Shown in pieces: positions 10,753 to 35,645 of a stretch of DNA of 39,503 nt (positions are counted from its first letter, which is position 1; each line of letters begins with the position of its first letter). Position numbers and translations under genes: made by a program. The notes under the pieces were generated by a model. It was not told the DNA's origin, ran no database searches, and worked only from the letters and a program-made list of their open reading frames with translations. Source of the stretch: Flavobacteriales bacterium (lineage in GTDB: Bacteria > Bacteroidota > Bacteroidia > UBA10329); contig JAIPBJ010000018.1 in the NCBI GenBank assembly GCA_021739625.1, forward strand, positions 1-39,503, read 5' to 3'.

Positions 10753-11820
10753 ATGAACATGATGCCCCGAACCATTTCCCGTGCTCTCATTCCTGTTTTC
10801 CTCATGGCCGCAGTGGGCTGCGATACGGGTCCGACCAACACCGACCACATTCCCACGCCCTATGAACTGACCATCCCTCCCGGTCTTCCACCGATGGAGA
10901 TACCGGCCGACAACCCGATGACGGTGGAAGGTGTGGCCCTGGGACGCAGACTGTTCTTCGAGCCCATGCTGTCGGGCGACAACACCATGTCGTGCTCCAC
11001 CTGCCATAGACCGGAGAATGGGTTTTCGGAACCACAGCAGACCAGTGTGGGCATCAACGGTGAGGTGGGCACGCGCAATGCCATGGCCATCATCAACCTG
11101 GGGTGGGTGAGGACGGGGCTGTTCTGGGACGGCCGTGCCGCCACGCTCGAAGCGCAGGCCCTTGGCCCGGTGACAAACCCCATAGAGATGAATTCGAAAT
11201 GGCCCGAGGTGGAGTCGAAGCTCAATGCCCATGCCGACTACCCGCAGCTTTTCAAGGATGCCTTCGGGGTGGACCGCATCGACTCGCTGACGGTGGCCAA
11301 GGCCATCGCTCAGTTCGAGCGCACCCTCATATCTGGAAATTCAAAGTTCGACCGTTGGTACAACCGTCACGAGATCCAACTGAGCGAGCAGGAGATGCGC
11401 GGCTTCGTGATGTACAACACCGAAGTGGCCGACTGCTTTCACTGCCACGGGCTGGGAGGTTTCATCACCGACAATCAGTTTCAGAACAATGGCCTTGACG
11501 AGACCTTTGCCGACATGGGCCGCTATGATGTGACCGGTGAGGAGGGGGACCGCGGCAGATTCCGAACGCCAACGCTGCGCAACATCGAAATGACCGCCCC
11601 CTATATGCACGATGGCCGGTTCTTCACCTTGGAGGAGGTGGTGGACCACTATAGCGACCACGTGAAGATATCGCCCACCATAAGCCCCACCATGGAGCTG
11701 GTGGGATTTGGTGGAGCACAGCTCACACAGCAGCAGAAAGAGGACCTCGTGGCCTTTCTACGTACCTTCACCGACCCGGAATTCCTCAGCAATCCCGATT
11801 TCAGCGATCCGAACCAATGA
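10753..11820 (+). CDS. Diheme cytochrome c peroxidase, MauG/MbnH type, lipoprotein
   Basis: 355 residues. An N-terminal lipobox (AAVGC, Cys23) predicts a membrane-anchored periplasmic lipoprotein. Two heme c sites are present, CSTCH (81-85) and CFHCH (228-232). The inter-heme Trp is kept in the motif FWDGRA (about 124-129). After the conserved APYMHDG (His286), the residue fourteen places on is Tyr300; classical bacterial peroxidases have the axial Met there, while MauG uses Tyr. This supports a MauG/MbnH-like enzyme that builds high-valent hemes and oxidises tryptophan on a partner protein. The partner is probably the MbnP-like protein encoded next, whose start overlaps this stop (ATGA). AGGAG directly before the first ATG is spaced better for an in-frame ATG at 10759, which may be the true start. 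Confidence 0.9.
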   Translation: MNMMPRTISRALIPVFLMAAVGCDTGPTNTDHIPTPYELTIPPGLPPMEIPADNPMTVEGVALGRRLFFEPMLSGDNTMSCSTCHRPENGFSEPQQTSVGINGEVGTRNAMAIINLGWVRTGLFWDGRAATLEAQALGPVTNPIEMNSKWPEVESKLNAHADYPQLFKDAFGVDRIDSLTVAKAIAQFERTLISGNSKFDRWYNRHEIQLSEQEMRGFVMYNTEVADCFHCHGLGGFITDNQFQNNGLDETFADMGRYDVTGEEGDRGRFRTPTLRNIEMTAPYMHDGRFFTLEEVVDHYSDHVKISPTISPTMELVGFGGAQLTQQQKEDLVAFLRTFTDPEFLSNPDFSDPNQ

Positions 11821-12623
11821 CCATGACCCCCATGAGAGACCGCCTCTTCCCATCGGCCCTTTTCGCCCTATTCATCGTGCTTGCCACAGGCTGCGAACGC
11901 AAGGAGGGATGCATGGACCCCTTGGCCATCAACTATGATGCTGAGGTGGAGACGGACAACGGAAGCTGTGTCTATGAGGTGCCGGGGACGTACCTCAACC
12001 TGCGGTTCAACCACAGGCTCGGAGGTGTGGATTTCGGCTATGGCGCGGTGGCCACCAATTGGGAGGGGCGCAAGGTCAAGTTCACCCTGGCGCAGTTCTA
12101 TATGAGCAAGATCAAGCTCGGAACGACCACTTTCGAAGACAGCTATCTGCTGGTGTCGGCACGCAAGGACCTGTTGGGCGTGGGCCACATCGGTGCGGGC
12201 GACCATGCCGGCCTGTCGTTCAATGTGGGGGTCGATTCGGCTGTCAACCACCTCGACCCGGCCACTTGGCCCTTTGACCACACGCTGTCGTCCAACAACA
12301 TCGACCATGCCCACTGGAGCTGGAATCCGGGCTACATCTTCATGAAACTGGAAGGACGGGTTGACACCACCGCTGCCATGGACGGTGATGCGGACGCGGC
12401 CTTCAGCATCCACATAGGGCTTGATGAACTGCTGACCAATGTGGCATTGGCCGGCAATATGAACGTTTCGGGCGACACCGCCATCATCGGCATCAACGTG
12501 GACTGGCTGCGGTTCTTGGACAACGTGGACCTTCGGCTCGAACGTAGCACCGACTCTTTCAACAATCCGGGCCTGGCGGTGGCTGTGAAAGGCAACATCG
12601 CATCGGCCTTCAGTCTCGAATAG
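11817..12623 (+). CDS. MbnP-like copper-binding lipoprotein
   Basis: 268 residues. A signal peptide ends in the lipobox LATGC (Cys26). A short motif GCMDPLAINYD (31-41), common near N-termini of Bacteroidota surface proteins, comes next. The main domain (about 58-268) resembles MbnP: the strand FTLAQFYMSKIKL, the GAGDHAGLSFNVGVD block (127-140) and the signature HAHWSWNPGYIFMKLEG (164-180) with Trp167 and Trp169. Characterised MbnP from methanotrophs binds copper with help of a kynurenine made from Trp by its diheme partner MbnH. Here a MbnH-type gene lies on each side: 4 bases of overlap upstream and 4 bases of gap downstream, so the three form one operon. Which Trp, if any, is modified cannot be read from sequence. 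Confidence 0.85.
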   Translation: MTMTPMRDRLFPSALFALFIVLATGCERKEGCMDPLAINYDAEVETDNGSCVYEVPGTYLNLRFNHRLGGVDFGYGAVATNWEGRKVKFTLAQFYMSKIKLGTTTFEDSYLLVSARKDLLGVGHIGAGDHAGLSFNVGVDSAVNHLDPATWPFDHTLSSNNIDHAHWSWNPGYIFMKLEGRVDTTAAMDGDADAAFSIHIGLDELLTNVALAGNMNVSGDTAIIGINVDWLRFLDNVDLRLERSTDSFNNPGLAVAVKGNIASAFSLE

Positions 12624-12627
12624 CGCT

Positions 12628-13638
12628 TTGCAGCGGACACTGTTCCATCTTGCCCTTTGCGCACTGATGGGCCTTGCGGCCTGCGAAAGAGATGTGGAGC
12701 ATCCTCTTCCGGTGGATGTGCCCGAATGGTTCCCCGAGATGGTCGTGCCTGCGGACAACGCACTGACGGCCGACCGCATCGCCCTCGGCCGCAGACTGTT
12801 CTACGACCCGCTGCTTTCGCGCGACACCTCCATATCTTGCTCCAGTTGCCATGCGCAGGCCATGGCCTTCACAGACGGACGGCAGGTGGGCCTTGGGGTG
12901 GGCGATAGGGCAGGCAAGCGCAATGCGCCCTCGCTCACCAACATCGCATTCGTGCCCGCATTCAATGCCGATGGGGGAATAGGTACGCTCGAATTGCAGG
13001 CGCAGGGCCCCATATTCCTGCACGAGGAGATGGATTTCACCATTGCGGGCTTTCTGGAGCGGATTGCGGGCGATGATACCTACACGGCCATGTTCGGGGC
13101 AGCCTATGGGCGCAGGCCCGATGCGTTCGGCATTTCGCGCGGGCTGGCCGCCTTCGAGCGCACCTTCGTGAGTGGCGGGTCGCGGTTCGACCAATATGAA
13201 TATCAGAGCGTTTCCACAGCGCTGTCTGCGGCCGAGCTGCGGGGCCGCGACCTTTTCTTGGGCAACGTGGCGCAATGTGCCCAATGCCATACCCCTCCGC
13301 TGTTCACCACCTTCGCCTACGAGAACATAGGGCTCTATGCCGTCTATGCCGATTCGGGGCGGGCGCGCATCACCGGCCTTGCGCAGGACAATGGGCGGTT
13401 CAAGGTGCCCACGCTGCGCAACATCGCCCTCACCGCGCCCTATATGCACGATGGCAGCATGGCCACGCTGCGCGATGCGGTGGCGCATTTCAACAATGGG
13501 GGAGTGGGCCATGCCAACCAGAGCGCGCATGTGCGCCCCTTGGGCCTCGCCCCGCAGCAGGTGGACGACCTTGTGGCGTTTCTGCAATCGTTGACGGACG
13601 AGGGGTTTGTGAACGACCCGGAGCTCTCAGAGCCCTGA
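12628..13638 (+). CDS. Second, divergent diheme cytochrome c peroxidase-like lipoprotein
   Basis: 336 residues, starting with TTG four bases after the MbnP stop; no ATG or GTG is available before the signal peptide, whose lipobox is GLAAC (Cys19). Both heme c sites are intact, CSSCH (71-75) and CAQCH (217-221), as is APYMHDG (His274). Two key positions differ from the upstream paralogue: the FWDGRA inter-heme Trp motif is replaced by FNADGG (about 112-117), and the residue fourteen after the APYMHDG His is Phe288 instead of Tyr or Met. Without an axial side chain the second heme may be five-coordinate, and electron transfer between hemes may be altered. It may have a distinct role, such as electron entry, or work as a heterodimer with the first enzyme. 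It is the last gene of the cluster. Confidence 0.85.
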   Translation: MQRTLFHLALCALMGLAACERDVEHPLPVDVPEWFPEMVVPADNALTADRIALGRRLFYDPLLSRDTSISCSSCHAQAMAFTDGRQVGLGVGDRAGKRNAPSLTNIAFVPAFNADGGIGTLELQAQGPIFLHEEMDFTIAGFLERIAGDDTYTAMFGAAYGRRPDAFGISRGLAAFERTFVSGGSRFDQYEYQSVSTALSAAELRGRDLFLGNVAQCAQCHTPPLFTTFAYENIGLYAVYADSGRARITGLAQDNGRFKVPTLRNIALTAPYMHDGSMATLRDAVAHFNNGGVGHANQSAHVRPLGLAPQQVDDLVAFLQSLTDEGFVNDPELSEP

Positions 13639-15849: not shown

Positions 15850-16338
15850 TCAGTTCTTAATGATCTTGAATGTTCTCACTTCTTTTCCGTTGTCCGTCAC
15901 GCTCAGGAAGTAGGCCGCGCTTGGCAGATGGTCCATACGTATCGATTCGGTGTTTCCGGTCATCTTTCTGTGCTCGACCGTTCTCCCGTTCAGGTCATAT
16001 AGCTGAAAATTGAGACCGGAGATTTCGGGACCGCCCACACTCAGCATCAATTGACCGGTAGTAGGGTTGGGGCATGCCTGAACATCGCGGCCGGTCTGAA
16101 GGTCTTGCACGCCTACCACATAAGAGATCTCGTAGGGCTGCTGCACACCCTGTGCCACAGACCCTGTTGCCCCGGTGTGGGTGATGCAGACCGATTGTCC
16201 TATGCTGTAGGCGACCGTGCCACCAATGCCCGATGCATCGCCACCTGTGGCCATGGCCGCCTGCTGTGCCTTTGCTGTTGTCAGTCCAAGGCACAGCGCT
16301 ATCGACAATGCAAAGGTTCTTCTGCTCATGCTGTCCAT
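15850..16338 (-). CDS. Short secreted protein with T9SS type A sorting domain
   Basis: 162 residues from ATG 16338; ATG 16329 (MSRRTFALSIALCLG) is an equally good start. A longer frame to 16464 lacks a sensible N-terminus. A signal peptide ends at TTAKAQ. The small middle part (GGTVAYSIGQSVCITHTGAT, then GSVAQGVQQPYEIS) belongs to a common Bacteroidota module that I recognise by pattern but cannot assign a function. The last 75 residues (QACPNPTTGQLMLSV, FQLYDLNGRTV, LPSAAYFLSV, KIIKN) form a type A T9SS C-terminal domain, so the protein should be exported and anchored through T9SS. It is the first gene of a set with the kelch and DUF4907 genes and may act as their surface anchor. Confidence 0.85.
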   Translation of the reverse strand: MDSMSRRTFALSIALCLGLTTAKAQQAAMATGGDASGIGGTVAYSIGQSVCITHTGATGSVAQGVQQPYEISYVVGVQDLQTGRDVQACPNPTTGQLMLSVGGPEISGLNFQLYDLNGRTVEHRKMTGNTESIRMDHLPSAAYFLSVTDNGKEVRTFKIIKN

Positions 16339-16525: not shown

Positions 16526-16533
16526 CAAATGTA
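16526..16533 (-). promoter_or_regulatory. Candidate -7 promoter for the T9SS-kelch-DUF4907 set
   Basis: On the minus strand TACATTTG is a full match to TAnnTTTG. It would give a leader of about 180 bases before ATG 16338. No -33 TTG sits at the standard spacing. Confidence 0.4.
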
Positions 16534-16612
16534 TTATTATGGGAACACAATGCTTCCGTACGCGCAACAGGCCTCGACCCGGGATATGAACCTCCGCTTC
16601 CTACCGGTCCTT

Positions 16613-16630
16613 GGCCCCGATGGGGCCTTT
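16613..16630. other. Hairpin at the head of the 42-bp repeat array
   Basis: GGCCCC (16613-16618) and GGGGCC (16622-16627) pair across a 3-base loop and are followed by TTT. It is terminator-like on the plus strand but the T-run is too short for a firm call. It directly precedes a degenerate copy of the 42-bp repeat (16631-16652). Confidence 0.45.
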
Positions 16631-16652
16631 CGGCAGGGGCATCACCACGTTT

Positions 16653-16963
16653 GGCAACCTGCCTTCCAGAGCTGGAAGGGGCATCACTGCTTCCAGCAAC
16701 CTGCCTTCCAGAGCTGGAAGGGGCATCACTGCTTCCGGCAACCTGCCTTCCAGAGCTGGAAGGGGCATCACTGCTTCCGGCAACCTGCCTTCCAGAGCTG
16801 GAAGGGGCATCACTGCTTCCGGTGACCTGCCTTCCAGAGCTGGAAGGGGCATCACTGCTTCCGGCAACCTGCCTTCCAGTGCTGGAAGGGGCATCCCTGC
16901 ATCCGGTGACCTGCCTTCCAGAGCTGGAAGGGGCATCCCCGCGTCCGGTGACCTGCCTTCCAG
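16653..16963. repeat. 42-bp tandem repeat array with an invariant palindrome (7.4 copies)
   Basis: Seven full 42-bp units start at 16653, 16695, 16737, 16779, 16821, 16863 and 16905, with a half unit from 16947. A degenerate half unit precedes at 16631. Each full unit carries the arms CCTTCCAG and CTGGAAGG around a 2-base centre (AG, or TG in unit 6). All unit-to-unit changes fall outside the arms, for example GGCAACC or GGTGACC at the left edge and ATCACTGCTTCC, ATCCCTGCATCC or ATCCCCGCGTCC at the right. Since 42 is a multiple of three, open frames run through the array on both strands, but they consist of the repeat only and lack gene features. Confidence 0.9.
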
Positions 16964-17089: not shown

Positions 17090-17128
17090 AAGCCCCGCCA
17101 CCTCTGGGTTGGCGGGGCTTCTGTTTTT
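17090..17128 (+). terminator. Strong rho-independent terminator without an upstream gene
   Basis: AAGCCCCGCCA (17090-17100) and TGGCGGGGCTT (17110-17120) form a perfect 11-bp stem with a 9-base loop, followed by CTGTTTTT. No plus-strand gene lies upstream within more than 3 kb, so it ends either an unseen short transcript from the repeat region or shields the peptidase promoter from read-through. Confidence 0.8.
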
Positions 17129-17138
17129 GGTATCATTG
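17109..17138 (+). promoter_or_regulatory. Promoter of the M36 peptidase gene overlapping the terminator
   Basis: TTG at 17109-17111, 19 bases of spacer, and TATCATTG at 17131-17138 (seven of eight bases of the spaced consensus kept) fit the Bacteroidota promoter layout. The implied start of transcription is near 17144, about 28 bases before ATG 17172. The -33 element lies within the loop and right arm of the terminator hairpin. Confidence 0.5.
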
Positions 17139-17171: not shown

Positions 17172-20100
17172 ATGATCCCTTCACTGCACATCAAAGCCTT
17201 GGCCCTGCCGGTGCTGTCCTGCTGCGTTGCGCTGTTGGGGCCAACGGCCGCCAGGGCGCAAGCAGATGCCCGGTCTGAGGTGGGCCGCCTCGCAGCCGGT
17301 CACTTCGCAGCATCGGCCACGCCCATGCAGTTCATTGTGAACGATGCCTACACCGACACCGACCTCGGCATCACCCATGGATATGTTCAGCAGGTTTACG
17401 GAGGGGTTCCTGTTCACAATGCCATTGCGGTGGTGGCGCTGAGGAACGGGCAGTTGGCACACATCGCAGAGGACTTTGTAAGGGACATCGCCTCGAAGGC
17501 CAACGCCAGCACACCTTCCATCAGCGCAGCACAGGCGGTGGTCAGTGCATTGCAACATCTCAAGAGGCCCATTCCTGATGATCTGGTGCAGATGGGGAGC
17601 AATGCGCAGAACGGCCATCTGCGGTTCTCCCTCCCCGAGGTGTCGGCCCGGCCTGTCGAGGTGGGAAAGGTCTATCTGCCCGTAGGCGATGAGGTGCGCC
17701 TTGCCTGGAATGTGAGCATCGAGATGAAGGACGTGGCGCACTGGTGGAACATCCGCGTGGATGCGCATTCGGGCCAATTCATCGACCGTGATGACTACAC
17801 GGCAAGCTGCAGCCTGCATCCTGCCACGTATCGCGACCGAACGCGGAAAGAGGGGAGGGCACAGGGCCTGCATCCCCATCCGGCCCCGCTTCCCATGCCA
17901 GTGGCCACTTCGTCCTACCGGGTGTTCCCGCTGCCTGTGGAGGCCCCGACCTTTGGCACACGCAGTCTGATGGAAGACCCCGCAGACCCCATCGCATCGC
18001 CATTCGGCTGGCACGACACCAACGGGGCCGATGGGGCAGAATACACCATTGCCCGGGGCAACAACACCCATGCCTATGAGGATGCCGACAATGATAACCT
18101 TCCCGGATACTCGCCCGATGGAGGCGGGGCACTGGCATTCGATTTCGCCTTGCTGCCCGATGTGGAGCCGATGGACAATCGGGATGCCGCCCTCACCAAT
18201 CTCTTCTATCAGACCAACGCCATCCACGATGTGCTCTATGCACACGGGTTCAACGAGGCTGCCGGCAACTTCCAGCAGAACAACTATGGGAGGGGCGGAT
18301 CGGGCGGTGACCACGTGTGGGCCGAGGGCTTTGACGGATCGGGCACCAACAACGCCAATTTCAGCACCCCGCCTGACGGTTCCGAACCACGGATGCAGAT
18401 GTATCTCTGGAATTCTGAGCCCGTGGGATGCAGCACGCTCGGCATCGTGTCGGACGGGTTCACCGGGACGATGGAAGTAGGCACGGCCGAGTTCACGGCC
18501 GTTGGAACTGTGACCGCACCCCTCATCCTTGCTGACGATGAGGTAGGAACAGGTTCTGACGCCTGCACCGACATACTGAACAATGTGGCGGGAAAGATCG
18601 TCCTCATAGACCGTGGAGGATGCAATTTCATATCGAAGGCGCAGCGTGCAGAAGCGGCAGGGGCCGTTGGCCTCATCATAGCCAACAATGTTGCAGGTGG
18701 GCCCACAGGCATGGCAGGCTCGCCCCAAGTGGGCATCCCGGTGCTGTCCGTATCGCTGGCAGATGGAGGTCTGCTCAGATCGGAACTGCTCCTTGGAACG
18801 GTGGAGGCCTCCTTGGTCACCTGTGCCCGCGACACCTTCGATTCCAATTTCGACAATGGCATCATAGCCCATGAATACGGCCACGGACTGTCGAACAGGT
18901 TGACCGGTGGCCCATCGCAGTCCAGCTGCCTTGCCAACGAGGAGCAGGGTGGCGAAGGCTGGAGCGATTGGCTGGCGCTCATGCTCACCATCACTCCCGC
19001 AGACCAAGGGGCCGATGCCAGAGGCATGGGGTCCTATGTGGCCAACGACCCCAACGAAGGGGGCGGGATCAGAACCTTTCCCTATAGCACCGACATGGCC
19101 GTGAACCCGCTCACCTACGGAGACCTTGACCCCGTTATGGGCGTGCATGCCCGGGGCGAGATATGGTGCGCTGCCATCTGGGACATGTCGTGGCTCCTGA
19201 TGGATGCGCACGGATTCAACAGCAGTCCGGCCGATGTGGCGGCCGGCAACAACATCGCCATCAGGCTCGTGCTCGAAGGGTTGAAACTGCAGCCGTGCAG
19301 CCCCGGCTACCTCGATGCCCGCGATGCCATTCTGGCGGCCGATGAGCTCCTTTTCGACAAGGCGCACAGACCCCTCATCTGGGAGGCGTTTGCCCGAAGG
19401 GGCATGGGATGCAGCGCAGCGCAGGGCAGTGCCAACGCGGTGGGCGATGAGACCGAGGCCTTCGACATGCCCACCCTTTTTTATCGCGATCAGGATGAGG
19501 ACGGCCATGGCCACCTGTGGTCAACCGAATTGGCCTGCACCCAGCCGATCGGATTCGTGACCAATTCAGTTGACTGTGACGATACGGATCCATCGGTCGG
19601 CCCCGACTGTCTGCAATGGATCGGCACTTTGAGTGAAGATTGGGATGCCCCGGGCAACTGGAGCAATGGAACAGTGCCCACCTCATCGGACGATGTGAGA
19701 ATTTCGGCAGTGCCGTCCAATCAGCCCGTGATAGGCGGAGCGTTGGCAGAATGCCTCGGTCTGGAGGTGCAGAGCGGGGCCTTGCTCACCATCGCGCCCG
19801 GCCATGCCCTCACAGCCAATGGCGACCTCACCAGCGCGGGCACGGTGCATGTCATGGCCGATGAGCTTGGCATCGGATCGCTCATTACCCTCGGCAGTGT
19901 CACCGGTGCAGGCACATTCCAGGCCGATCAGTATCTCACAGGTGCGGGCGGGGCCACACCCAGCGGGGTGTTCTACTACGTGAGCAGCGCTGTGGCAGGG
20001 GCCAATGCGGCCAGCTATGGTCTCGCCAGCGGCAACAGGCTCTGGAGCGCAAGCGAGTCCACGCAGACCTACCCACAGATGACCGATGGCGCCACGGTGC

Positions 20101-21188
20101 TCAATGCAGGTCAGGGCTATGTGGTGCGCATGGGCGGCAGCGGCAGTCGCGAGCTAAGCGGCACCGCCTTCAACACCGGCAACGTGACCCTCAATGGCCT
20201 CACCCGCACAGGGGCAGGGGCCAACGCAGGCTACAATCTGGTGGGCAACCCTTATCCGTCCTCCGTGAGCTGGGATGCGGCCATCAAGGGCAATCTGGAG
20301 GACGACATCTGGTTCCGCACCCATACCGATGCGCTGCTCATGAACTTCGATGTGTATAATGCCGTCAGCGGCATCGGTACGGACAACAACCGTTTCAACC
20401 AGGATGTGACAGGCATCGTCCCACCGGGCCAGGCATTCTGGGTGCGGGTACTGGACGGAGAGACCAGCGGTTCGCTCGGCTTCGATAACGCCATGCGCAG
20501 CCACGGCATGCAGAGCGCACTCTACCGTCTGGCGGCCGAAGAGGGCACGGTGCGCATGCGCATCACCGGGGCCACAGGCAGCGATGTGACCATCGTGCAT
20601 TTCACCACGGAGGCCGAGAACGGCTATGATGCGTTCGACAGTCGCAAGATGTTCGGGGCGGCCACCCTGCCGCAGTTGCACACCACCGCAGCCAATGAGG
20701 CGATGGCCATCAACGGCCTCTTCAGCACCGCGACCAACCCCATCGTTGACCTCGCGGTGCGCATTCCCGCAACTGGCGATTACATCCTCACCGCACACAG
20801 CATCACGTTGAATGAGGAGGTATGGCTTGAGGACCGCCTGCTCAACGCATTCGAGCATCTGAATCTGAACCCCGTGTATGCCTTCACTGCCGATGCCGGC
20901 AACATGGACGACCGCTTTGCGCTGCACTTCGGGGCTGTGGCGGTCGGGGTGGAGGAGAACACTTCAATTTCACACGTGTTCGCATCCGATGGAGTGGTCA
21001 ACATCATTGTGGGCAACGACCTCGCCAGTGGCACCATCGCAATCCTGGACATGGCGGGCCGCATGGTCCGGACAGCATCCATCAGTGGCAACCGCACGGT
21101 CATGGCCACCGATCTTGCCACGGGCATCTACCTCGTTCGTATAGAAACTGTGAATGGTTCGGAGACACACAGAATTCTGTTGCGGTAG
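17172..21188 (+). CDS. M36 fungalysin-type metallopeptidase with PA domain and T9SS type A sorting domain
   Basis: 1338 residues from ATG 17172, which gives a standard signal peptide (MIPSLHIKALALPVLSCCVA); a start at 17073 would place the terminator hairpin inside the gene. Order of parts: FTP-like propeptide (about 40-200), peptidase with zinc motif HEYGH (His567, Glu568, His571) and third ligand Glu595 in GGEGWSDW, interrupted by a protease-associated insert (about 440-540, with AGKIVLIDRGGCNF and AAGAVGLIIANN), then a calcium-type DQDEDGHG stretch, a long beta-rich region (about 815-1250) and a C-terminal type A sorting domain (GTIAILDMAGRMV, LATGIYLVRI, HRILLR). It should be a secreted, self-processed zinc protease for extracellular protein degradation. 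All catalytic residues are kept. A 49-residue peptide gene follows, with its own promoter. Confidence 0.93.
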   Translation: MIPSLHIKALALPVLSCCVALLGPTAARAQADARSEVGRLAAGHFAASATPMQFIVNDAYTDTDLGITHGYVQQVYGGVPVHNAIAVVALRNGQLAHIAEDFVRDIASKANASTPSISAAQAVVSALQHLKRPIPDDLVQMGSNAQNGHLRFSLPEVSARPVEVGKVYLPVGDEVRLAWNVSIEMKDVAHWWNIRVDAHSGQFIDRDDYTASCSLHPATYRDRTRKEGRAQGLHPHPAPLPMPVATSSYRVFPLPVEAPTFGTRSLMEDPADPIASPFGWHDTNGADGAEYTIARGNNTHAYEDADNDNLPGYSPDGGGALAFDFALLPDVEPMDNRDAALTNLFYQTNAIHDVLYAHGFNEAAGNFQQNNYGRGGSGGDHVWAEGFDGSGTNNANFSTPPDGSEPRMQMYLWNSEPVGCSTLGIVSDGFTGTMEVGTAEFTAVGTVTAPLILADDEVGTGSDACTDILNNVAGKIVLIDRGGCNFISKAQRAEAAGAVGLIIANNVAGGPTGMAGSPQVGIPVLSVSLADGGLLRSELLLGTVEASLVTCARDTFDSNFDNGIIAHEYGHGLSNRLTGGPSQSSCLANEEQGGEGWSDWLALMLTITPADQGADARGMGSYVANDPNEGGGIRTFPYSTDMAVNPLTYGDLDPVMGVHARGEIWCAAIWDMSWLLMDAHGFNSSPADVAAGNNIAIRLVLEGLKLQPCSPGYLDARDAILAADELLFDKAHRPLIWEAFARRGMGCSAAQGSANAVGDETEAFDMPTLFYRDQDEDGHGHLWSTELACTQPIGFVTNSVDCDDTDPSVGPDCLQWIGTLSEDWDAPGNWSNGTVPTSSDDVRISAVPSNQPVIGGALAECLGLEVQSGALLTIAPGHALTANGDLTSAGTVHVMADELGIGSLITLGSVTGAGTFQADQYLTGAGGATPSGVFYYVSSAVAGANAASYGLASGNRLWSASESTQTYPQMTDGATVLNAGQGYVVRMGGSGSRELSGTAFNTGNVTLNGLTRTGAGANAGYNLVGNPYPSSVSWDAAIKGNLEDDIWFRTHTDALLMNFDVYNAVSGIGTDNNRFNQDVTGIVPPGQAFWVRVLDGETSGSLGFDNAMRSHGMQSALYRLAAEEGTVRMRITGATGSDVTIVHFTTEAENGYDAFDSRKMFGAATLPQLHTTAANEAMAINGLFSTATNPIVDLAVRIPATGDYILTAHSITLNEEVWLEDRLLNAFEHLNLNPVYAFTADAGNMDDRFALHFGAVAVGVEENTSISHVFASDGVVNIIVGNDLASGTIAILDMAGRMVRTASISGNRTVMATDLATGIYLVRIETVNGSETHRILLR

Positions 21189-22054: not shown

Positions 22055-22145
22055 ACAGACCGCAGAACACAGACCATAGACCAAAGACCACAGACCATTG
22101 ACCACAGACCATCGTCTATCGACTATCGACCGTGGACTATCGACT
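22055..22145. repeat. Heptamer array, 7-bp period (ACAGACC/ATCGACT type)
   Basis: Thirteen consecutive 7-mers run in phase from 22055: ACAGACC, GCAGAAC, ACAGACC, ATAGACC, AAAGACC, ACAGACC, ATTGACC, ACAGACC, ATCGTCT, ATCGACT, ATCGACC, GTGGACT, ATCGACT. The core is ANNGACY. The array fills the space between the SRPBCC stop and the thiolase promoter. No gene is in it. Confidence 0.85.
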
Positions 22146-22176
22146 GAATTCTGAAGTCCCGCCCTTTTCCCTTCCG

Positions 22177-22207: not shown

Positions 22208-23389
22208 ATGAAAGAAGTAGTGATCGTAAGTGCCGTGCGCACACCCCTCGGAAGTTTCAACGGCAAACTGAGCACCGTTCCCGCCCCGCGATTGGGCGCT
22301 GCGGCCATCAAAGGCGCTGTGGAGAAGGCGGGCATCGACCCGATGAGCGTGCAGGAGGTCTTTATGGGCTGTGTGATCCAGGCCGGAGTGGGGCAGGCCC
22401 CCGCAAGGCAGGCGGCCAAGTTCGCAGGGCTGGGCGACCATGTTGCGGCCACCACTGTCAACAAGGTCTGTGCCTCGGGCATGAAGGCCATCATGCTGGG
22501 CGCGCAGAGCATCATGCTGGGCGAGAACGACATCGTGGTGGCAGGCGGCATGGAGAACATGAGCCTTGTGCCACACTATCTGCCCAACTCGCGCATCGGC
22601 ACCAAGTATGGCAACATCACCATGCAGGACGGCCTCGCGGTCGATGGCCTCATTGATGTCTATCACCAGTATCCGATGGGCAACGCGGCCGAGCTGTGCG
22701 CCAAGGAGTGCAACATCACCCGCGAGGAGCAGGACGCTTATGCCATCGAGAGCTATACCCGCAGTGCAAAGGCGTGGGCTGCCGGGGCCTTCGCCAACGA
22801 GATCGTGCCTGTGGCCGTGCCGCAGCGCAGTGGCGACCCGCTGATGGTGGACACCGATGAGGAGTTCACCAACGTGAAGATGGACAGGATCGCTTCCCTG
22901 CGTCCGGCATTCATCAAGGACGGCACAGTGACCGCTGCCAACGCATCGACCATGAACGATGGTGCTGCGGCCGTGGTGCTGATGAGCAAAGAAAAAGCTG
23001 CTGAGCTCGGACTGAAGCCCTTGGCCACCATCCTCTCCTTTGCCGATGCGGCACAGGCTCCGGAGTGGTTCACCACCACACCGTCAAAGGCCATCCCCAA
23101 GGCACTGGCCAAGGCCGGACTGACCACCGACAGCATCGACCTGTTCGAGATCAACGAGGCATTCTCGGTGGTGTGCATCGCCAATAACAGGGAGATGAAG
23201 CTCGACCCGTCCAAGGTGAATGTGAACGGTGGCGCGGTGTCGCTCGGCCATCCGCTGGGGTGCAGCGGTGCGCGCATCATCGTCACCCTCATCCACGCCC
23301 TCCACAATCGCAACCTGACCACCGGTGCTGCGGCCATCTGCAACGGTGGTGGTGGGGCAAGTGCACTTGTGCTTCGCAAGTCCAATTAA
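22208..23389 (+). CDS. Acetyl-CoA C-acetyltransferase (thiolase)
   Basis: 393 residues, the standard length of biosynthetic-type thiolases. The catalytic residues are all in place: acyl-accepting Cys88 in NKVCASGMKA, His348 in GGAVSLGHPLGCSG and the base Cys378 in CNGGGGASA. The enzyme condenses two acetyl-CoA to acetoacetyl-CoA or cleaves it in the reverse direction, in the cytoplasm, in ketone-body-like, branched fatty acid or polyhydroxyalkanoate metabolism. No neighbouring 3-hydroxyacyl-CoA dehydrogenase or CoA-transferase narrows the pathway. Heptamer arrays flank the gene on both sides. A dehydrogenase E1 gene lies 1.8 kb downstream, but intervening genes of unrelated function make an operon unlikely. 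Confidence 0.95.
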   Translation: MKEVVIVSAVRTPLGSFNGKLSTVPAPRLGAAAIKGAVEKAGIDPMSVQEVFMGCVIQAGVGQAPARQAAKFAGLGDHVAATTVNKVCASGMKAIMLGAQSIMLGENDIVVAGGMENMSLVPHYLPNSRIGTKYGNITMQDGLAVDGLIDVYHQYPMGNAAELCAKECNITREEQDAYAIESYTRSAKAWAAGAFANEIVPVAVPQRSGDPLMVDTDEEFTNVKMDRIASLRPAFIKDGTVTAANASTMNDGAAAVVLMSKEKAAELGLKPLATILSFADAAQAPEWFTTTPSKAIPKALAKAGLTTDSIDLFEINEAFSVVCIANNREMKLDPSKVNVNGGAVSLGHPLGCSGARIIVTLIHALHNRNLTTGAAAICNGGGGASALVLRKSN

Positions 23390-23517
23390 CAATTGGCAAT
23401 GAACAATGAGCAATTTCGCGAATGCAACATGGCAACTTCAATTGATAATTGCCCATTGTTCATTGATAATTGCCCATTGCTAATTGATAATTGCCCATTG
23501 ATAATTGATAATTGAAC
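23390..23517. repeat. Heptamer array, 7-bp period (ATTGNNN type)
   Basis: From 23441 eleven 7-mers run in phase: ATTGATA, ATTGCCC, ATTGTTC, ATTGATA, ATTGCCC, ATTGCTA, ATTGATA, ATTGCCC, ATTGATA, ATTGATA, ATTGAAC. Four related CAATNNN units start right after the thiolase stop (23390-23417), separated by a less regular stretch. The array reaches to within four bases of the next gene's likely GTG start. Confidence 0.88.
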
Positions 23518-23520
23518 CAA

Positions 23521-32341: not shown

Positions 32342-34663
32342 ATGAACAGATATCTCATCCTTTTGGCAATGCTGGTGCTCGGTCTGAGTGAGGCCCATGC
32401 GCAGTATGATTTCACCATTCAGGGCATGAACATCGTGCCGCAGCGAAGCTATATCAACCCTGCGTTCATCCCCGACAGCAAAGGACACCTTGGCCTGCCG
32501 TTGCTCTCAAGCAACCACATTGCCGGTGGTTTCAGCGGTTTTGCCTACTCAGACCTCGTCAGGAAGAATGGCGACTCGCTCTTCTTCGACTTCGACAATG
32601 CCCTTGACAAGATGGGCAAGACAGGCTATCTGAGTGTCAACGCCAACCTCGACCTGCTTTCCTTCAGTTTCAAATTCGGCAAGCAGCAGGAGAACTTCAT
32701 CTACATAAACGTTACCGAGCGTCTTGCGGCCCGGTTCTCATTGCCTAAGGAGCTACCTGATTTCGTGGTGAGAGGAAATGCTGCGTTCCTCGGTCAGGAG
32801 GTCGATTTCAAACGCCTCAATGTGGATGCAAGCCACTATCGCGAATATGGCATCACCTACGCCCGCACACTGCTCGATAAAAAGCTGAATGTGGGACTCA
32901 CGGCCAAGTATCTCTATGGTATGGAGAACATCTCGTCCGATGTGACAAGGTTGGATGTGTTCACGGACGAGAACACGTTCGACATCACTGCCCGCTCTGA
33001 TTTCCGCATCAATACCTCTGGTGCGTTCGGGGGCGAATTCGACAATTTCGGCAATGACATGGGCGGATATCTCTTCACACGCAACAACCATGGTTTTGCC
33101 TTCAATGTGGGTGCGCAGTACAAGATCAATGAGAAATGGGAAGTGGCCGCCAGTGGTCTCGATCTCGGCATGATCTTCTGGAATGAGAATCCGGTCAACT
33201 ATGTGATGAACGATGCCAATTTCACCTATCAGGGCCTTGACATAGCCCAGTTCATAGCTCAGGACAGCACCGACTATCTGCAGAACTTCCTCGATTCCAT
33301 CGTAAACACCTTTGATATTACCGAGACCAACAACACTTATTCCAACGTTCTGCCATCGCGCATCTATGTGAGCGGTGCATACAACATCAATAAGAACAAC
33401 CGCGTGGGCCTCGATTTCTATGGTGAGGTGTTCAAGGGTCATTTCGAACCGGCCGTGTCAATCAGCTATACCAAGCGATTCGGGAAGATCTTCAACCTCA
33501 GCGGCAGCTACATGTACAACAATCAGAGCTGGGCCAACCTCGGTGCCGGTTTCGCATTGACACTCGGCCCGTTGCAGTGGTATCTCACCATGGACAACAT
33601 CCTTGCGCCCATCATCCCACAGCACGTTCAAAACTTCCATTTCCACAGCGGACTCAATATGGTCTTCGGCTACAAGGACAAGAAACCTGTGGCCAGTGAC
33701 CGTGACGGTGATGGGATACCGGACACCGAAGATGCCTGCCCGGACGAGTATGGCCTCAAGATATTCAACGGTTGTCCCGACCGCGATTGGGACGGCATTC
33801 CAGACAAGGACGACAACTGCCCTGACGAGGCCGGACCAGTGGAGAACAAAGGCTGCCCATGGGGCGACCGCGATGGCGACACGGTGCTGGACAATGTGGA
33901 TGATTGTCCCGATGTGGCTGGCGACCCTGCCAACAAGGGCTGCCCTTATGGCGACCGCGATGGCGACACAGTGCTGGACAATGTGGATGATTGTCCCGAT
34001 GTGCCTGGCGATCCGGCCAACAAGGGCTGTCCGTGGGGCGACCGCGATGGTGACGGTGTTCTTGACAATGTGGACAAATGCCCGGATGTGCCCGGCCCTG
34101 TTGAAAATGAGGGATGCCCTTATGGTGACCGTGATGGTGACGGGGTCATGGACAATGATGACCGATGCCCAGATACCCCCGGCCCTGTGGAGAACGCTGG
34201 ATGTCCTTGGCCCGATACGGACGGTGACGGGGTGTTCGACCATGTGGACGATTGTCCACGCACACCCGGCCCGCCAGAGAACAAGGGATGCCCTGTCATT
34301 GAGGTGCAGGAACAGGAGGTGCTCAACACCGCATTCTCAAACCTTGAATTCGAAACTGGCAAGGACGTGATCAAGGCATCGTCCTATGGTTCGATGGACG
34401 AGTTGGCCGATCTGCTCAAACGCAAGGAGAACTATCGCCTGCGCATCAGCGGCCATACAGATAATGTGGGCAAGCCCGAATCCAACTTGCGCCTCTCTGA
34501 GAAGAGGGCCCGCGCAGTGGAGAGCTATCTGAAAAACAAAGGGGTAGCTCCTGCACAGTTCGATGTGAAGTGGTTCGGACAGACCAAACCGGCCTATCCC
34601 AACGACACGCCCGAAGGACGACAGAAGAACCGGAGGGTGGAGATGGAGGTCGTCTTCGACTGA
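32342..34663 (+). CDS. Outer-membrane protein: DUF5723 barrel, thrombospondin-3 repeats and OmpA domain
   Basis: 773 residues. Signal peptide (1-21). Residues about 22-445 form a DUF5723-like outer-membrane barrel (QGMNIVPQRSYINPAFIPD, YGITYARTLLDKKLNVGLTA, GSYMYNNQSWANLGAGFALT). Residues 453-650 hold seven thrombospondin type 3 repeats of the form DRDGDGVLDNVDKCPD, each about 29 residues with calcium-binding Asp and a CxxxxG-Cys pair. Residues about 655-773 are an OmpA peptidoglycan-binding domain (FSNLEFETGKDVIKASSYGS, LRISGHTDNVGKPESNLRLS, GRQKNRRVEMEV). The protein should tie the outer membrane to the cell wall, with a calcium-stiffened spacer. It ends the three-gene operon; a strong terminator follows. 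Confidence 0.92.
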   Translation: MNRYLILLAMLVLGLSEAHAQYDFTIQGMNIVPQRSYINPAFIPDSKGHLGLPLLSSNHIAGGFSGFAYSDLVRKNGDSLFFDFDNALDKMGKTGYLSVNANLDLLSFSFKFGKQQENFIYINVTERLAARFSLPKELPDFVVRGNAAFLGQEVDFKRLNVDASHYREYGITYARTLLDKKLNVGLTAKYLYGMENISSDVTRLDVFTDENTFDITARSDFRINTSGAFGGEFDNFGNDMGGYLFTRNNHGFAFNVGAQYKINEKWEVAASGLDLGMIFWNENPVNYVMNDANFTYQGLDIAQFIAQDSTDYLQNFLDSIVNTFDITETNNTYSNVLPSRIYVSGAYNINKNNRVGLDFYGEVFKGHFEPAVSISYTKRFGKIFNLSGSYMYNNQSWANLGAGFALTLGPLQWYLTMDNILAPIIPQHVQNFHFHSGLNMVFGYKDKKPVASDRDGDGIPDTEDACPDEYGLKIFNGCPDRDWDGIPDKDDNCPDEAGPVENKGCPWGDRDGDTVLDNVDDCPDVAGDPANKGCPYGDRDGDTVLDNVDDCPDVPGDPANKGCPWGDRDGDGVLDNVDKCPDVPGPVENEGCPYGDRDGDGVMDNDDRCPDTPGPVENAGCPWPDTDGDGVFDHVDDCPRTPGPPENKGCPVIEVQEQEVLNTAFSNLEFETGKDVIKASSYGSMDELADLLKRKENYRLRISGHTDNVGKPESNLRLSEKRARAVESYLKNKGVAPAQFDVKWFGQTKPAYPNDTPEGRQKNRRVEMEVVFD
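33698..34300 (+). repeat. In-gene 87-bp repeats coding for thrombospondin-3 units
   Basis: Seven units of about 87 bp (29 codons); clear starts of the GCGACC/GTGACC motif are seen at 33864, 33951, 34038 and 34125. Units three and four are nearly identical at DNA level (for example GTGCTGGACAATGTGGATGA in both), which suggests recent duplication. Confidence 0.85.
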
Positions 34664-35254: not shown

Positions 35255-35645
35255 TTAGCAATGCTGCGCAAAAGGCGGTCATCGGTCGGCCATGCCAACG
35301 CTTCGTTACGCTATGTGCCCACCTCGGAGAGCCAATGGACCGCTTTGTCCGGATAACCTGAAACCCTTGACAGCAGAGGGCTGGCGGAGGCGCGGGACTT
35401 CTGCTGGGAGGCGCGGGACTTCTGCGGATTGGCGCGGGACTTCTGCGGATTGGCGCGGGACTTCTGCGGATTGGCGCGGCACATTGGCCGCATGGCGCAT
35501 TGGAACAGCAGATGGGCGGGTCACATCCGCTTAGTGACGCATCTCTTTCACGGCATGTTGCAATGCCTTGGCTCGATAGTGTACGTCATTGTCGATATGA
35601 TGAAGTCAAGCTGCTGAATGGTGAATGACGCTGCACCATCAGCAA
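35255..35645. other. Non-coding stretch between convergent units
   Basis: About 390 bases without a credible gene. It holds the 21-bp tandem array (35391-35516) and, next to the stop of the barrel gene, an imperfect hairpin: TGCTGAATGGTG (35612-35623) with CACCATCAGCA (35634-35644), one bulged base, no T-run on either side. Short open frames exist on both strands but are made of the repeat. Confidence 0.6.
35391..35516. repeat. 21-bp tandem repeat array
   Basis: Units of 21 bp start at 35391, 35412, 35433 and 35454; the last three are identical (CGCGGGACTTCTGCGGATTG plus G) and the first differs at five bases in its right third. Two diverged units follow at 35475 and 35496. No palindrome is evident. 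It sits between the terminator of the CTD-like gene and the end of the barrel gene. Confidence 0.85.

What the first reader, a model, noticed from the sequence alone, without database searches (positions are those of the whole stretch)
16613..16963. 42-bp tandem array with an invariant palindrome at four-helical-turn spacing
Seen: seven full units in perfect register, each with arms CCTTCCAG/CTGGAAGG untouched by variation while the flanks vary. The period of 42 bp equals four turns of B-DNA (4 x 10.5), so every palindrome faces the same side. It lies between two divergent promoters for T9SS-secreted products. Inferred: an array of binding sites for a dimeric protein, or a set of hairpins in a transcript, rather than a coding repeat.
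Basis: partly seen in the sequence, partly recalled or inferred. Interest (0 to 1): 0.6.

Follow-up and report, generated by a model that had tools for sequence, protein, structure and literature searches.

The report
Untranslated 42-bp hairpin repeat array
A real, untranslated array of eight 42-base repeats, each carrying a perfect hairpin-forming palindrome, turns out to be one of a large set of mostly unrelated intergenic repeat arrays in this bacterial genus whose repeat length is almost always a multiple of 21 bases (two turns of the DNA helix); nobody seems to have described that rule, and its cause is not yet known.

Summary
In detail: 7.8 units of 42 bp (16635-16963, 93% match, no indels) and seven perfect CCTTCCAG-NN-CTGGAAGG palindromes exactly 42 bp apart. 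The array is untranslated and single-copy in this genome; no array like it was found in the other collections searched. The wider result is that it belongs to a class. In five genomes of the genus, 28 of 37 non-coding arrays (score >=80, period >=18) have a period that is a multiple of 21 bp (null 1/21, P~8e-30). They are mostly unrelated in sequence, and the lags 7, 10/11 and 31/32 show no signal inside them. Non-coding arrays show no codon-phase bias (0 of 28; coding arrays 19 of 28). A sister palindromic 42-bp family in the same genome (three loci) keeps its dyad through two-sided base changes, and its arrays end at the palindrome centre, as here. A 54-bp leader is shared only by this locus and one of those three. 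At an orthologous gene junction such arrays come and go between species. Most likely this is a slippage-born minisatellite of hairpin units locked to whole two-turn steps. A hairpin RNA or a phased array of protein-binding sites remains open.

The parts
16635..16963 (.). 42-bp tandem array, 7.8 copies, untranslated
   Evidence: TRF; no codon-phase bias; only copy in the genome
16662..16679 (.). palindrome 1 of 7, CCTTCCAG-AG-CTGGAAGG
16704..16721 (.). palindrome 2
16746..16763 (.). palindrome 3
16788..16805 (.). palindrome 4
16830..16847 (.). palindrome 5
16872..16889 (.). palindrome 6, central dinucleotide TG instead of AG
16914..16931 (.). palindrome 7
16956..16963 (.). terminal half-palindrome CCTTCCAG; the array stops exactly at the palindrome centre
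   Evidence: homology to the unit ends at 16963
16584..16637 (+). leader shared with one other palindromic 42-bp array locus of the genome (C108; 46 of 54 identical); holds hairpin GGCCCCGATGGGGCC at 16613-16627
17090..17128 (+). intrinsic terminator: 11-bp perfect stem AAGCCCCGCCA/TGGCGGGGCTT then CTGTTTTT
   Evidence: sequence, folds
17109..17138 (+). candidate Bacteroidota-type promoter of the M36 gene (TTGG, 18 nt, TATCATTG), inside and after the terminator
   Evidence: consensus match only
16526..16533 (-). candidate -7 element TACATTTG for the minus-strand T9SS cargo gene, with no good -33 box at the right distance
   Evidence: consensus match only
15850..16329 (-). neighbour: small protein with T9SS sorting domain PF18962 (frame open to 16464)
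17172..21188 (+). neighbour: M36 fungalysin-type metallopeptidase, probable T9SS cargo
22057..22111 (.). another array of the class: 21 bp built of heptads ACAGACC, just after a stop codon
23440..23514 (.). another array of the class: 21 bp built of heptads ATTGNNN
35387..35498 (.). another array of the class: 21 bp, GGCGCGGGACTTCTGCGGATT, with relatives on two other contigs

Best explanation
The array is an untranslated intergenic minisatellite of hairpin-forming 42-bp units, one of an extrapolated hundred or so arrays in this genome whose period is locked to multiples of 21 bp. SHOWN: the array, its dyads, no sign of coding, the 21n rule across five genomes of the genus, dyad conservation through paired changes in a sister 42-bp family, array edges at the palindrome centre, gain and loss of arrays at one orthologous gene junction, and a leader shared with one sister locus. 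INFERRED: units are born by replication slippage or template switching at the hairpin, which would put duplication ends at the dyad centre and keep the two arms matched. Steps of 7 bp are favoured by slippage (an idea of Mrazek 2007, as quoted in PMC4679880 and PMC4692102), and inserts persist when they are whole two-turn steps; 21 is the smallest number that is both 3x7 and 2x10.5. Any local effect would be indirect: spacing, supercoil-driven cruciforms, or hairpins in read-through RNA.
For: 28 of 37 non-coding arrays (score >=80, period >=18) in five same-genus genomes have period 21n, P~8e-30; of 23 periods above 21 that are multiples of 7, 22 are multiples of 21, P=5e-10; Markov-simulated non-coding DNA gives no array of score >=80. 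Non-coding 8-mer autocorrelation peaks at 42, 84, 126, 21, 63, 105 and 147. Short young repeat pairs outside arrays sit at 14, 21 and 7 bp (25 of 56 multiples of 7). Identity inside arrays is raised at 21, 42 and 63 and not at 7, 10, 11, 14, 31 or 32. No codon bias. Sister family: core stem paired in 80 of 80 cells, two pairs changed on both sides, covariation score reached by 3 of 500 shuffles. Edges at the dyad centre. Arrays present or absent at the thiolase junction: five of eight species compact, three with unrelated repeat-rich inserts.
Against: Slippage does not by itself explain why 28, 35, 49 and 56 bp are missing; the two-turn persistence step is an assumption. Conserved cores with variable linkers in part of the arrays (Fisher P=2.6e-4) and a conserved leader hint at selection on sequence. 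The dyad covariation rests on three loci and few events. Only about 18% of the own genome and 5-10% of four relatives were sampled, with a home-made gene caller.
Confidence: 0.45

Rival explanations
1. A structured RNA: a plus-strand transcript carries the leader hairpin, a string of 42-nt stem-loops and the terminator at 17090-17128, and acts as a small RNA or 3'-UTR element (RNase block, sponge, or mRNA stabiliser).
For: Leader, palindromic 42-bp array and plus-strand terminator occur in the same order at this locus and at C108. In the sister family the changed pairs go G-C to G.U to A-U, and the wobbles are G.U on the leader strand in the array and in the leader hairpin. All three sister arrays lie 3' of a gene on the leader strand. 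The plus-strand fold is 4.3 sd below shuffles.
Against: No promoter-like element on the plus strand between 16330 and 17089. Here the upstream gene is on the other strand. The terminator sequence is generic in this genome. No Rfam family. Template switching at quasi-palindromes can also produce paired changes.
Confidence: 0.25
2. A phased array of DNA-binding sites: a dimeric protein binds each palindrome, and the 42-bp (four-turn) spacing puts all sites on one face, so that the dimers polymerise or wrap DNA; other arrays would serve other proteins.
For: Dyads exceed column-permuted units in 9 of 28 arrays at P<=0.03. Conserved 7-12 bp cores every 21 bp with variable linkers. The same cores recur at unlinked loci.
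Against: Most arrays have no dyad; sequences are mostly unrelated, so many different proteins would be needed. The 10.5-bp phase alone would also allow 31-32 and 52-53 bp, which are not seen. Arrays are not promoter-proximal as a class and are lost at an orthologous junction. No regulator gene lies next to this one.
Confidence: 0.2
3. A coding repeat of 14 residues (or a decayed gene).
For: Period divisible by 3; four of six frames are open across the array.
Against: No codon-phase substitution bias here or in the class, while coding arrays of the same genomes show it; sister arrays have stops in several frames; no protein relative of the repeat was found.
Confidence: 0.03
4. An assembly artefact of a metagenome-derived genome (collapsed or expanded copy number).
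For: 179 contigs; an array of 329 bp is long for short reads.
Against: Units differ in an ordered way, the array sits inside a 39-kb contig, and the same rule appears in five independent assemblies.
Confidence: 0.04

Closest known systems
Heptamer short tandem repeats (STRRs of cyanobacteria; TAACTGA repeats of Beggiatoaceae and some Bacteroidetes; PMC4679880, PMC4692102)
   Same: Untranslated intergenic tandem repeats, many loci per genome, lineage-specific, length steps tied to 7
   Different: Unit here is 42 bp with no 7-bp sub-period; sequences are mostly unrelated between loci; the rule is 21n, not 7
REP/BIME palindromic repeats
   Same: Intergenic palindromic units in groups, dispersed sister family
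   Different: This array is single-copy; units are strictly head to tail at 42 bp; no link to a RAYT transposase was looked for
Iterons and other helically phased protein-binding arrays
   Same: Direct repeats spaced by whole numbers of turns (architecture known from general knowledge)
   Different: No replication or regulator gene beside it; many arrays with unrelated sequences
Type III toxin-antitoxin RNA arrays (ToxI)
   Same: Tandem repeats, then a terminator, then a gene
   Different: The downstream gene is an M36 peptidase, not a ToxN-type RNase
Bacterial minisatellites (VNTR)
   Same: Nearly identical head-to-tail units, edge units degenerate, copy number differs between sister loci (about 7, 6 and 3)
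   Different: Period quantised to 21n across a genus

Membership tests
Heptamer STRR / long simple sequence repeats | 7-nt repeat unit | tested here: not met
   Identity at lag 7 is 0.28, expected 0.27
Heptamer STRR / long simple sequence repeats | intergenic and untranslated | tested here: met
21n intergenic array class of this genus (defined here) | non-coding array with period a multiple of 21 bp | tested here: met
CRISPR array | conserved repeats separated by unique spacers | tested here: not met
   The linkers are near-identical between units
Type III toxin-antitoxin | ToxN-type toxin gene directly downstream | tested here: not met
   Downstream gene is peptidase M36
REP/BIME | same palindrome dispersed at many loci | tested here: not met
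   Exact palindrome only in this array; elsewhere only 2-mismatch single sites
REP/BIME | cognate RAYT transposase in the genome | not tested
   Not searched
Iteron array | adjacent replication initiator gene | tested here: not met
   The nine neighbouring genes searched (10.7-23.4 kb) gave no Rep-type Pfam hit
Structured RNA element | compensatory base changes | tested here: inconclusive
   Seen in the sister family; no homologous copies of this array exist to test
Structured RNA element | transcript exists | not testable with these tools
   No expression data

The most novel reading that the evidence does not exclude
Bacteria of this genus carry a large class of intergenic arrays selected or built in exact two-turn (21-bp) steps, with mostly unrelated sequences. 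This would mean that some cellular machine or physical constraint measures DNA in 21-bp units, with the palindromic 42-bp arrays as its hairpin-bearing subset.
Probability: 0.35. Interest if true: 0.75.

Novelty: new variant of a known kind. Interest (0 to 1): 0.55.

Why it matters
A length rule that holds across mostly unrelated sequences points to a mechanism acting on DNA geometry or on the replication machinery, not on sequence. It makes an old puzzle (why heptamer and longer tandem repeats favour certain lengths in bacterial intergenic DNA) directly testable by census and by slippage assays. If the hairpins are transcribed, it would also add a tandem stem-loop RNA class.

Tried and rejected
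Look for the same array elsewhere: none in 98 relatives (best E 0.02, short chance hits), phages, plasmids, IMG/VR or GTDB contigs (two single chance palindromes). Syntenic array in sister species: neighbours are not conserved there. A-tract curvature or a 10.5-bp sub-period: no signal. Heptad sub-period: none except in two arrays of the window. Coding: rejected. Rfam: no hits, or chance hits to eukaryotic families. Sequence homology between this 42-bp unit and the sister palindromic family: not detectable (15 of 42, P=0.10). Dyads as a general rule of the class: only 9 of 28. Divergent-promoter placement: not enriched. Literature search for a 21-bp rule: nothing found in nine searches.

Full report
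OBSERVATION. The array is real and as described: period 42, 7.8 copies, 16635-16963, no indels; seven exact 18-bp palindromes at 42-bp spacing. Variation is confined to thirteen adjacent linker columns and the central dinucleotide; the arms are invariant (hypergeometric P=0.004), but so is some flanking sequence. Against column-permuted units the palindrome has P=0.005. The array occurs once in its genome and was not found in relatives or in the phage, plasmid, viral and GTDB collections.

SURROUNDINGS. Left: a minus-strand protein with a T9SS sorting domain. Right: a plus-strand M36 metallopeptidase, probably T9SS-exported. Between array and M36 gene stands a strong plus-strand terminator (11-bp stem, 17090-17120, then T-rich), followed by the best M36 promoter candidate. 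No plus-strand promoter-like element was found upstream of the terminator.

NOT CODING. Four of six frames happen to be open, but differences between units are not concentrated at any codon position (P=0.12). None of 28 non-coding arrays of the genus show such bias, while 19 of 28 coding arrays do.

A CLASS, NOT A SINGLE CURIOSITY. A census of 655 kb of the own genome and 1.2 Mb of four sister species showed many intergenic arrays with mostly unrelated sequences and periods of 21, 42, 63, 84 and 126 bp: 28 of 37 (score >=80, period >=18) are multiples of 21 (P~8e-30). In eleven other families of the class the figure is 1 of 7 (Fisher P=0.005), with 22, 46 and 49 bp instead. Non-coding 8-mer autocorrelation peaks at 42, 84, 126, 21, 63, 105 and 147. 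Inside the arrays identity is raised at 21n only, so neither heptads nor single helical turns are visible. Among periods above 21 that are multiples of 7, 22 of 23 are multiples of 21 (P=5e-10). About 19 such arrays in 655 kb extrapolate to roughly a hundred in the genome.

INTERNAL ANATOMY. Some arrays are built of 21-bp units with a conserved 7-12 bp core and variable linker. Others, like this one, repeat only at 42 bp with two unrelated halves. Dyads beyond chance occur in 9 of 28 arrays at P<=0.03. Arrays form small dispersed families in the own genome: GTTCGGGAAGGG (three loci), GGCGCGGGRCTTCTGC (three loci) and a palindromic 42-bp family (C142, C12, C108).

THE SISTER PALINDROMIC FAMILY. 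Its unit junction reads CCGTGCA-GT-TGCACGG, CCGTGCA-AG-TGCACGG (or TGCATGG), CCATGCT-TA-AGCATGG and CCATGCA-CG-TGCATGG. The eight core pairs form in all 80 cells, two pairs have changed on both sides, and one passes through a G.U intermediate. These arrays have about 7, 6 and 3 units, begin next to a conserved box CGCTCCCAGAGC, and begin and end at the centre of the palindrome. The window array also ends exactly at the palindrome centre (16963). A 54-bp leader with its own hairpin (16584-16637) is shared only with locus C108 (46 of 54 identical), where it also precedes a palindromic 42-bp array, with a similar terminator further on. The 42-bp units of the two loci are not detectably homologous.

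TURNOVER. At the conserved thiolase gene junction the own genome has a 21-bp array, two sister species have other repeat-rich inserts, and five are compact. Class members lie nearer to the 3' end of the upstream gene in 13 of 16 tandem cases (P=0.011). Both facts speak against a fixed promoter-operator role.

MECHANISM. The most economical reading is a DNA-level one. Hairpin-forming units are duplicated by slippage or template switching at the hairpin, which explains edges at the dyad centre and the co-changing arms. The step length follows the 7-nt preference of slippage reported for bacterial repeats (Mrazek 2007, as quoted in PMC4679880 and PMC4692102; the original paper was not read), and arrays persist at whole two-turn lengths. 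The last step is inference. The RNA reading gains from the leader, the terminator and G.U wobbles that all fall on one strand; the protein-site reading gains from conserved cores. Neither could be tested without expression or binding data.

LIMITS. The genomes are draft, metagenome-type assemblies; sampling was partial; genes were called with a home-made codon model; leader and family evidence rests on two and three loci. Novelty is judged from nine full-text searches of open papers only.

Noticed in passing
window 22055-22160 and 23380-23520: Heptad repeats on either side of a thiolase gene. Around 23380-23520 a left block of CAATNNN heptads faces a right block of ATTGNNN heptads, so the two could pair as one long multi-register hairpin after a stop codon.
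   Followed up: partly
window 35387-35498; G000 C99:11994-12145; C75:80091-80157: Dispersed 21-bp array family GGCGCGGGRCTTCTGC on three contigs, in both orientations.
   Followed up: partly
L087:15543-15747, L180:6714-6914, L235:1435-1722: Dispersed 21-bp array family GTTCGGGAAGGG.CAACC at three loci of the genome.
   Followed up: partly
L226-L233, downstream of the thiolase gene: Same gene junction in eight species: five are compact, three carry unrelated repeat-rich inserts, a natural experiment on gain and loss of such arrays.
   Followed up: partly
L222:18148, L223:15053, L147:19522: Other Bacteroidia families have 22-bp instead of 21-bp intergenic arrays.
   Followed up: no
window 10753-13638: Two MauG-type di-haem peroxidases flank an MbnP-domain protein (PF20243), resembling an MbnH/MbnP copper-protein pair.
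   Followed up: no
window 33778-34195: 87-bp coding repeat with clear third-position substitution bias; the peptide (DRDGDGVLDNVD...CPD) looks like a calcium-binding TSP3-type repeat.
   Followed up: no
L193:13977-14086: Perfect 14-bp array GCGTCTCACACACA x 7.9 in a sister species.
   Followed up: no
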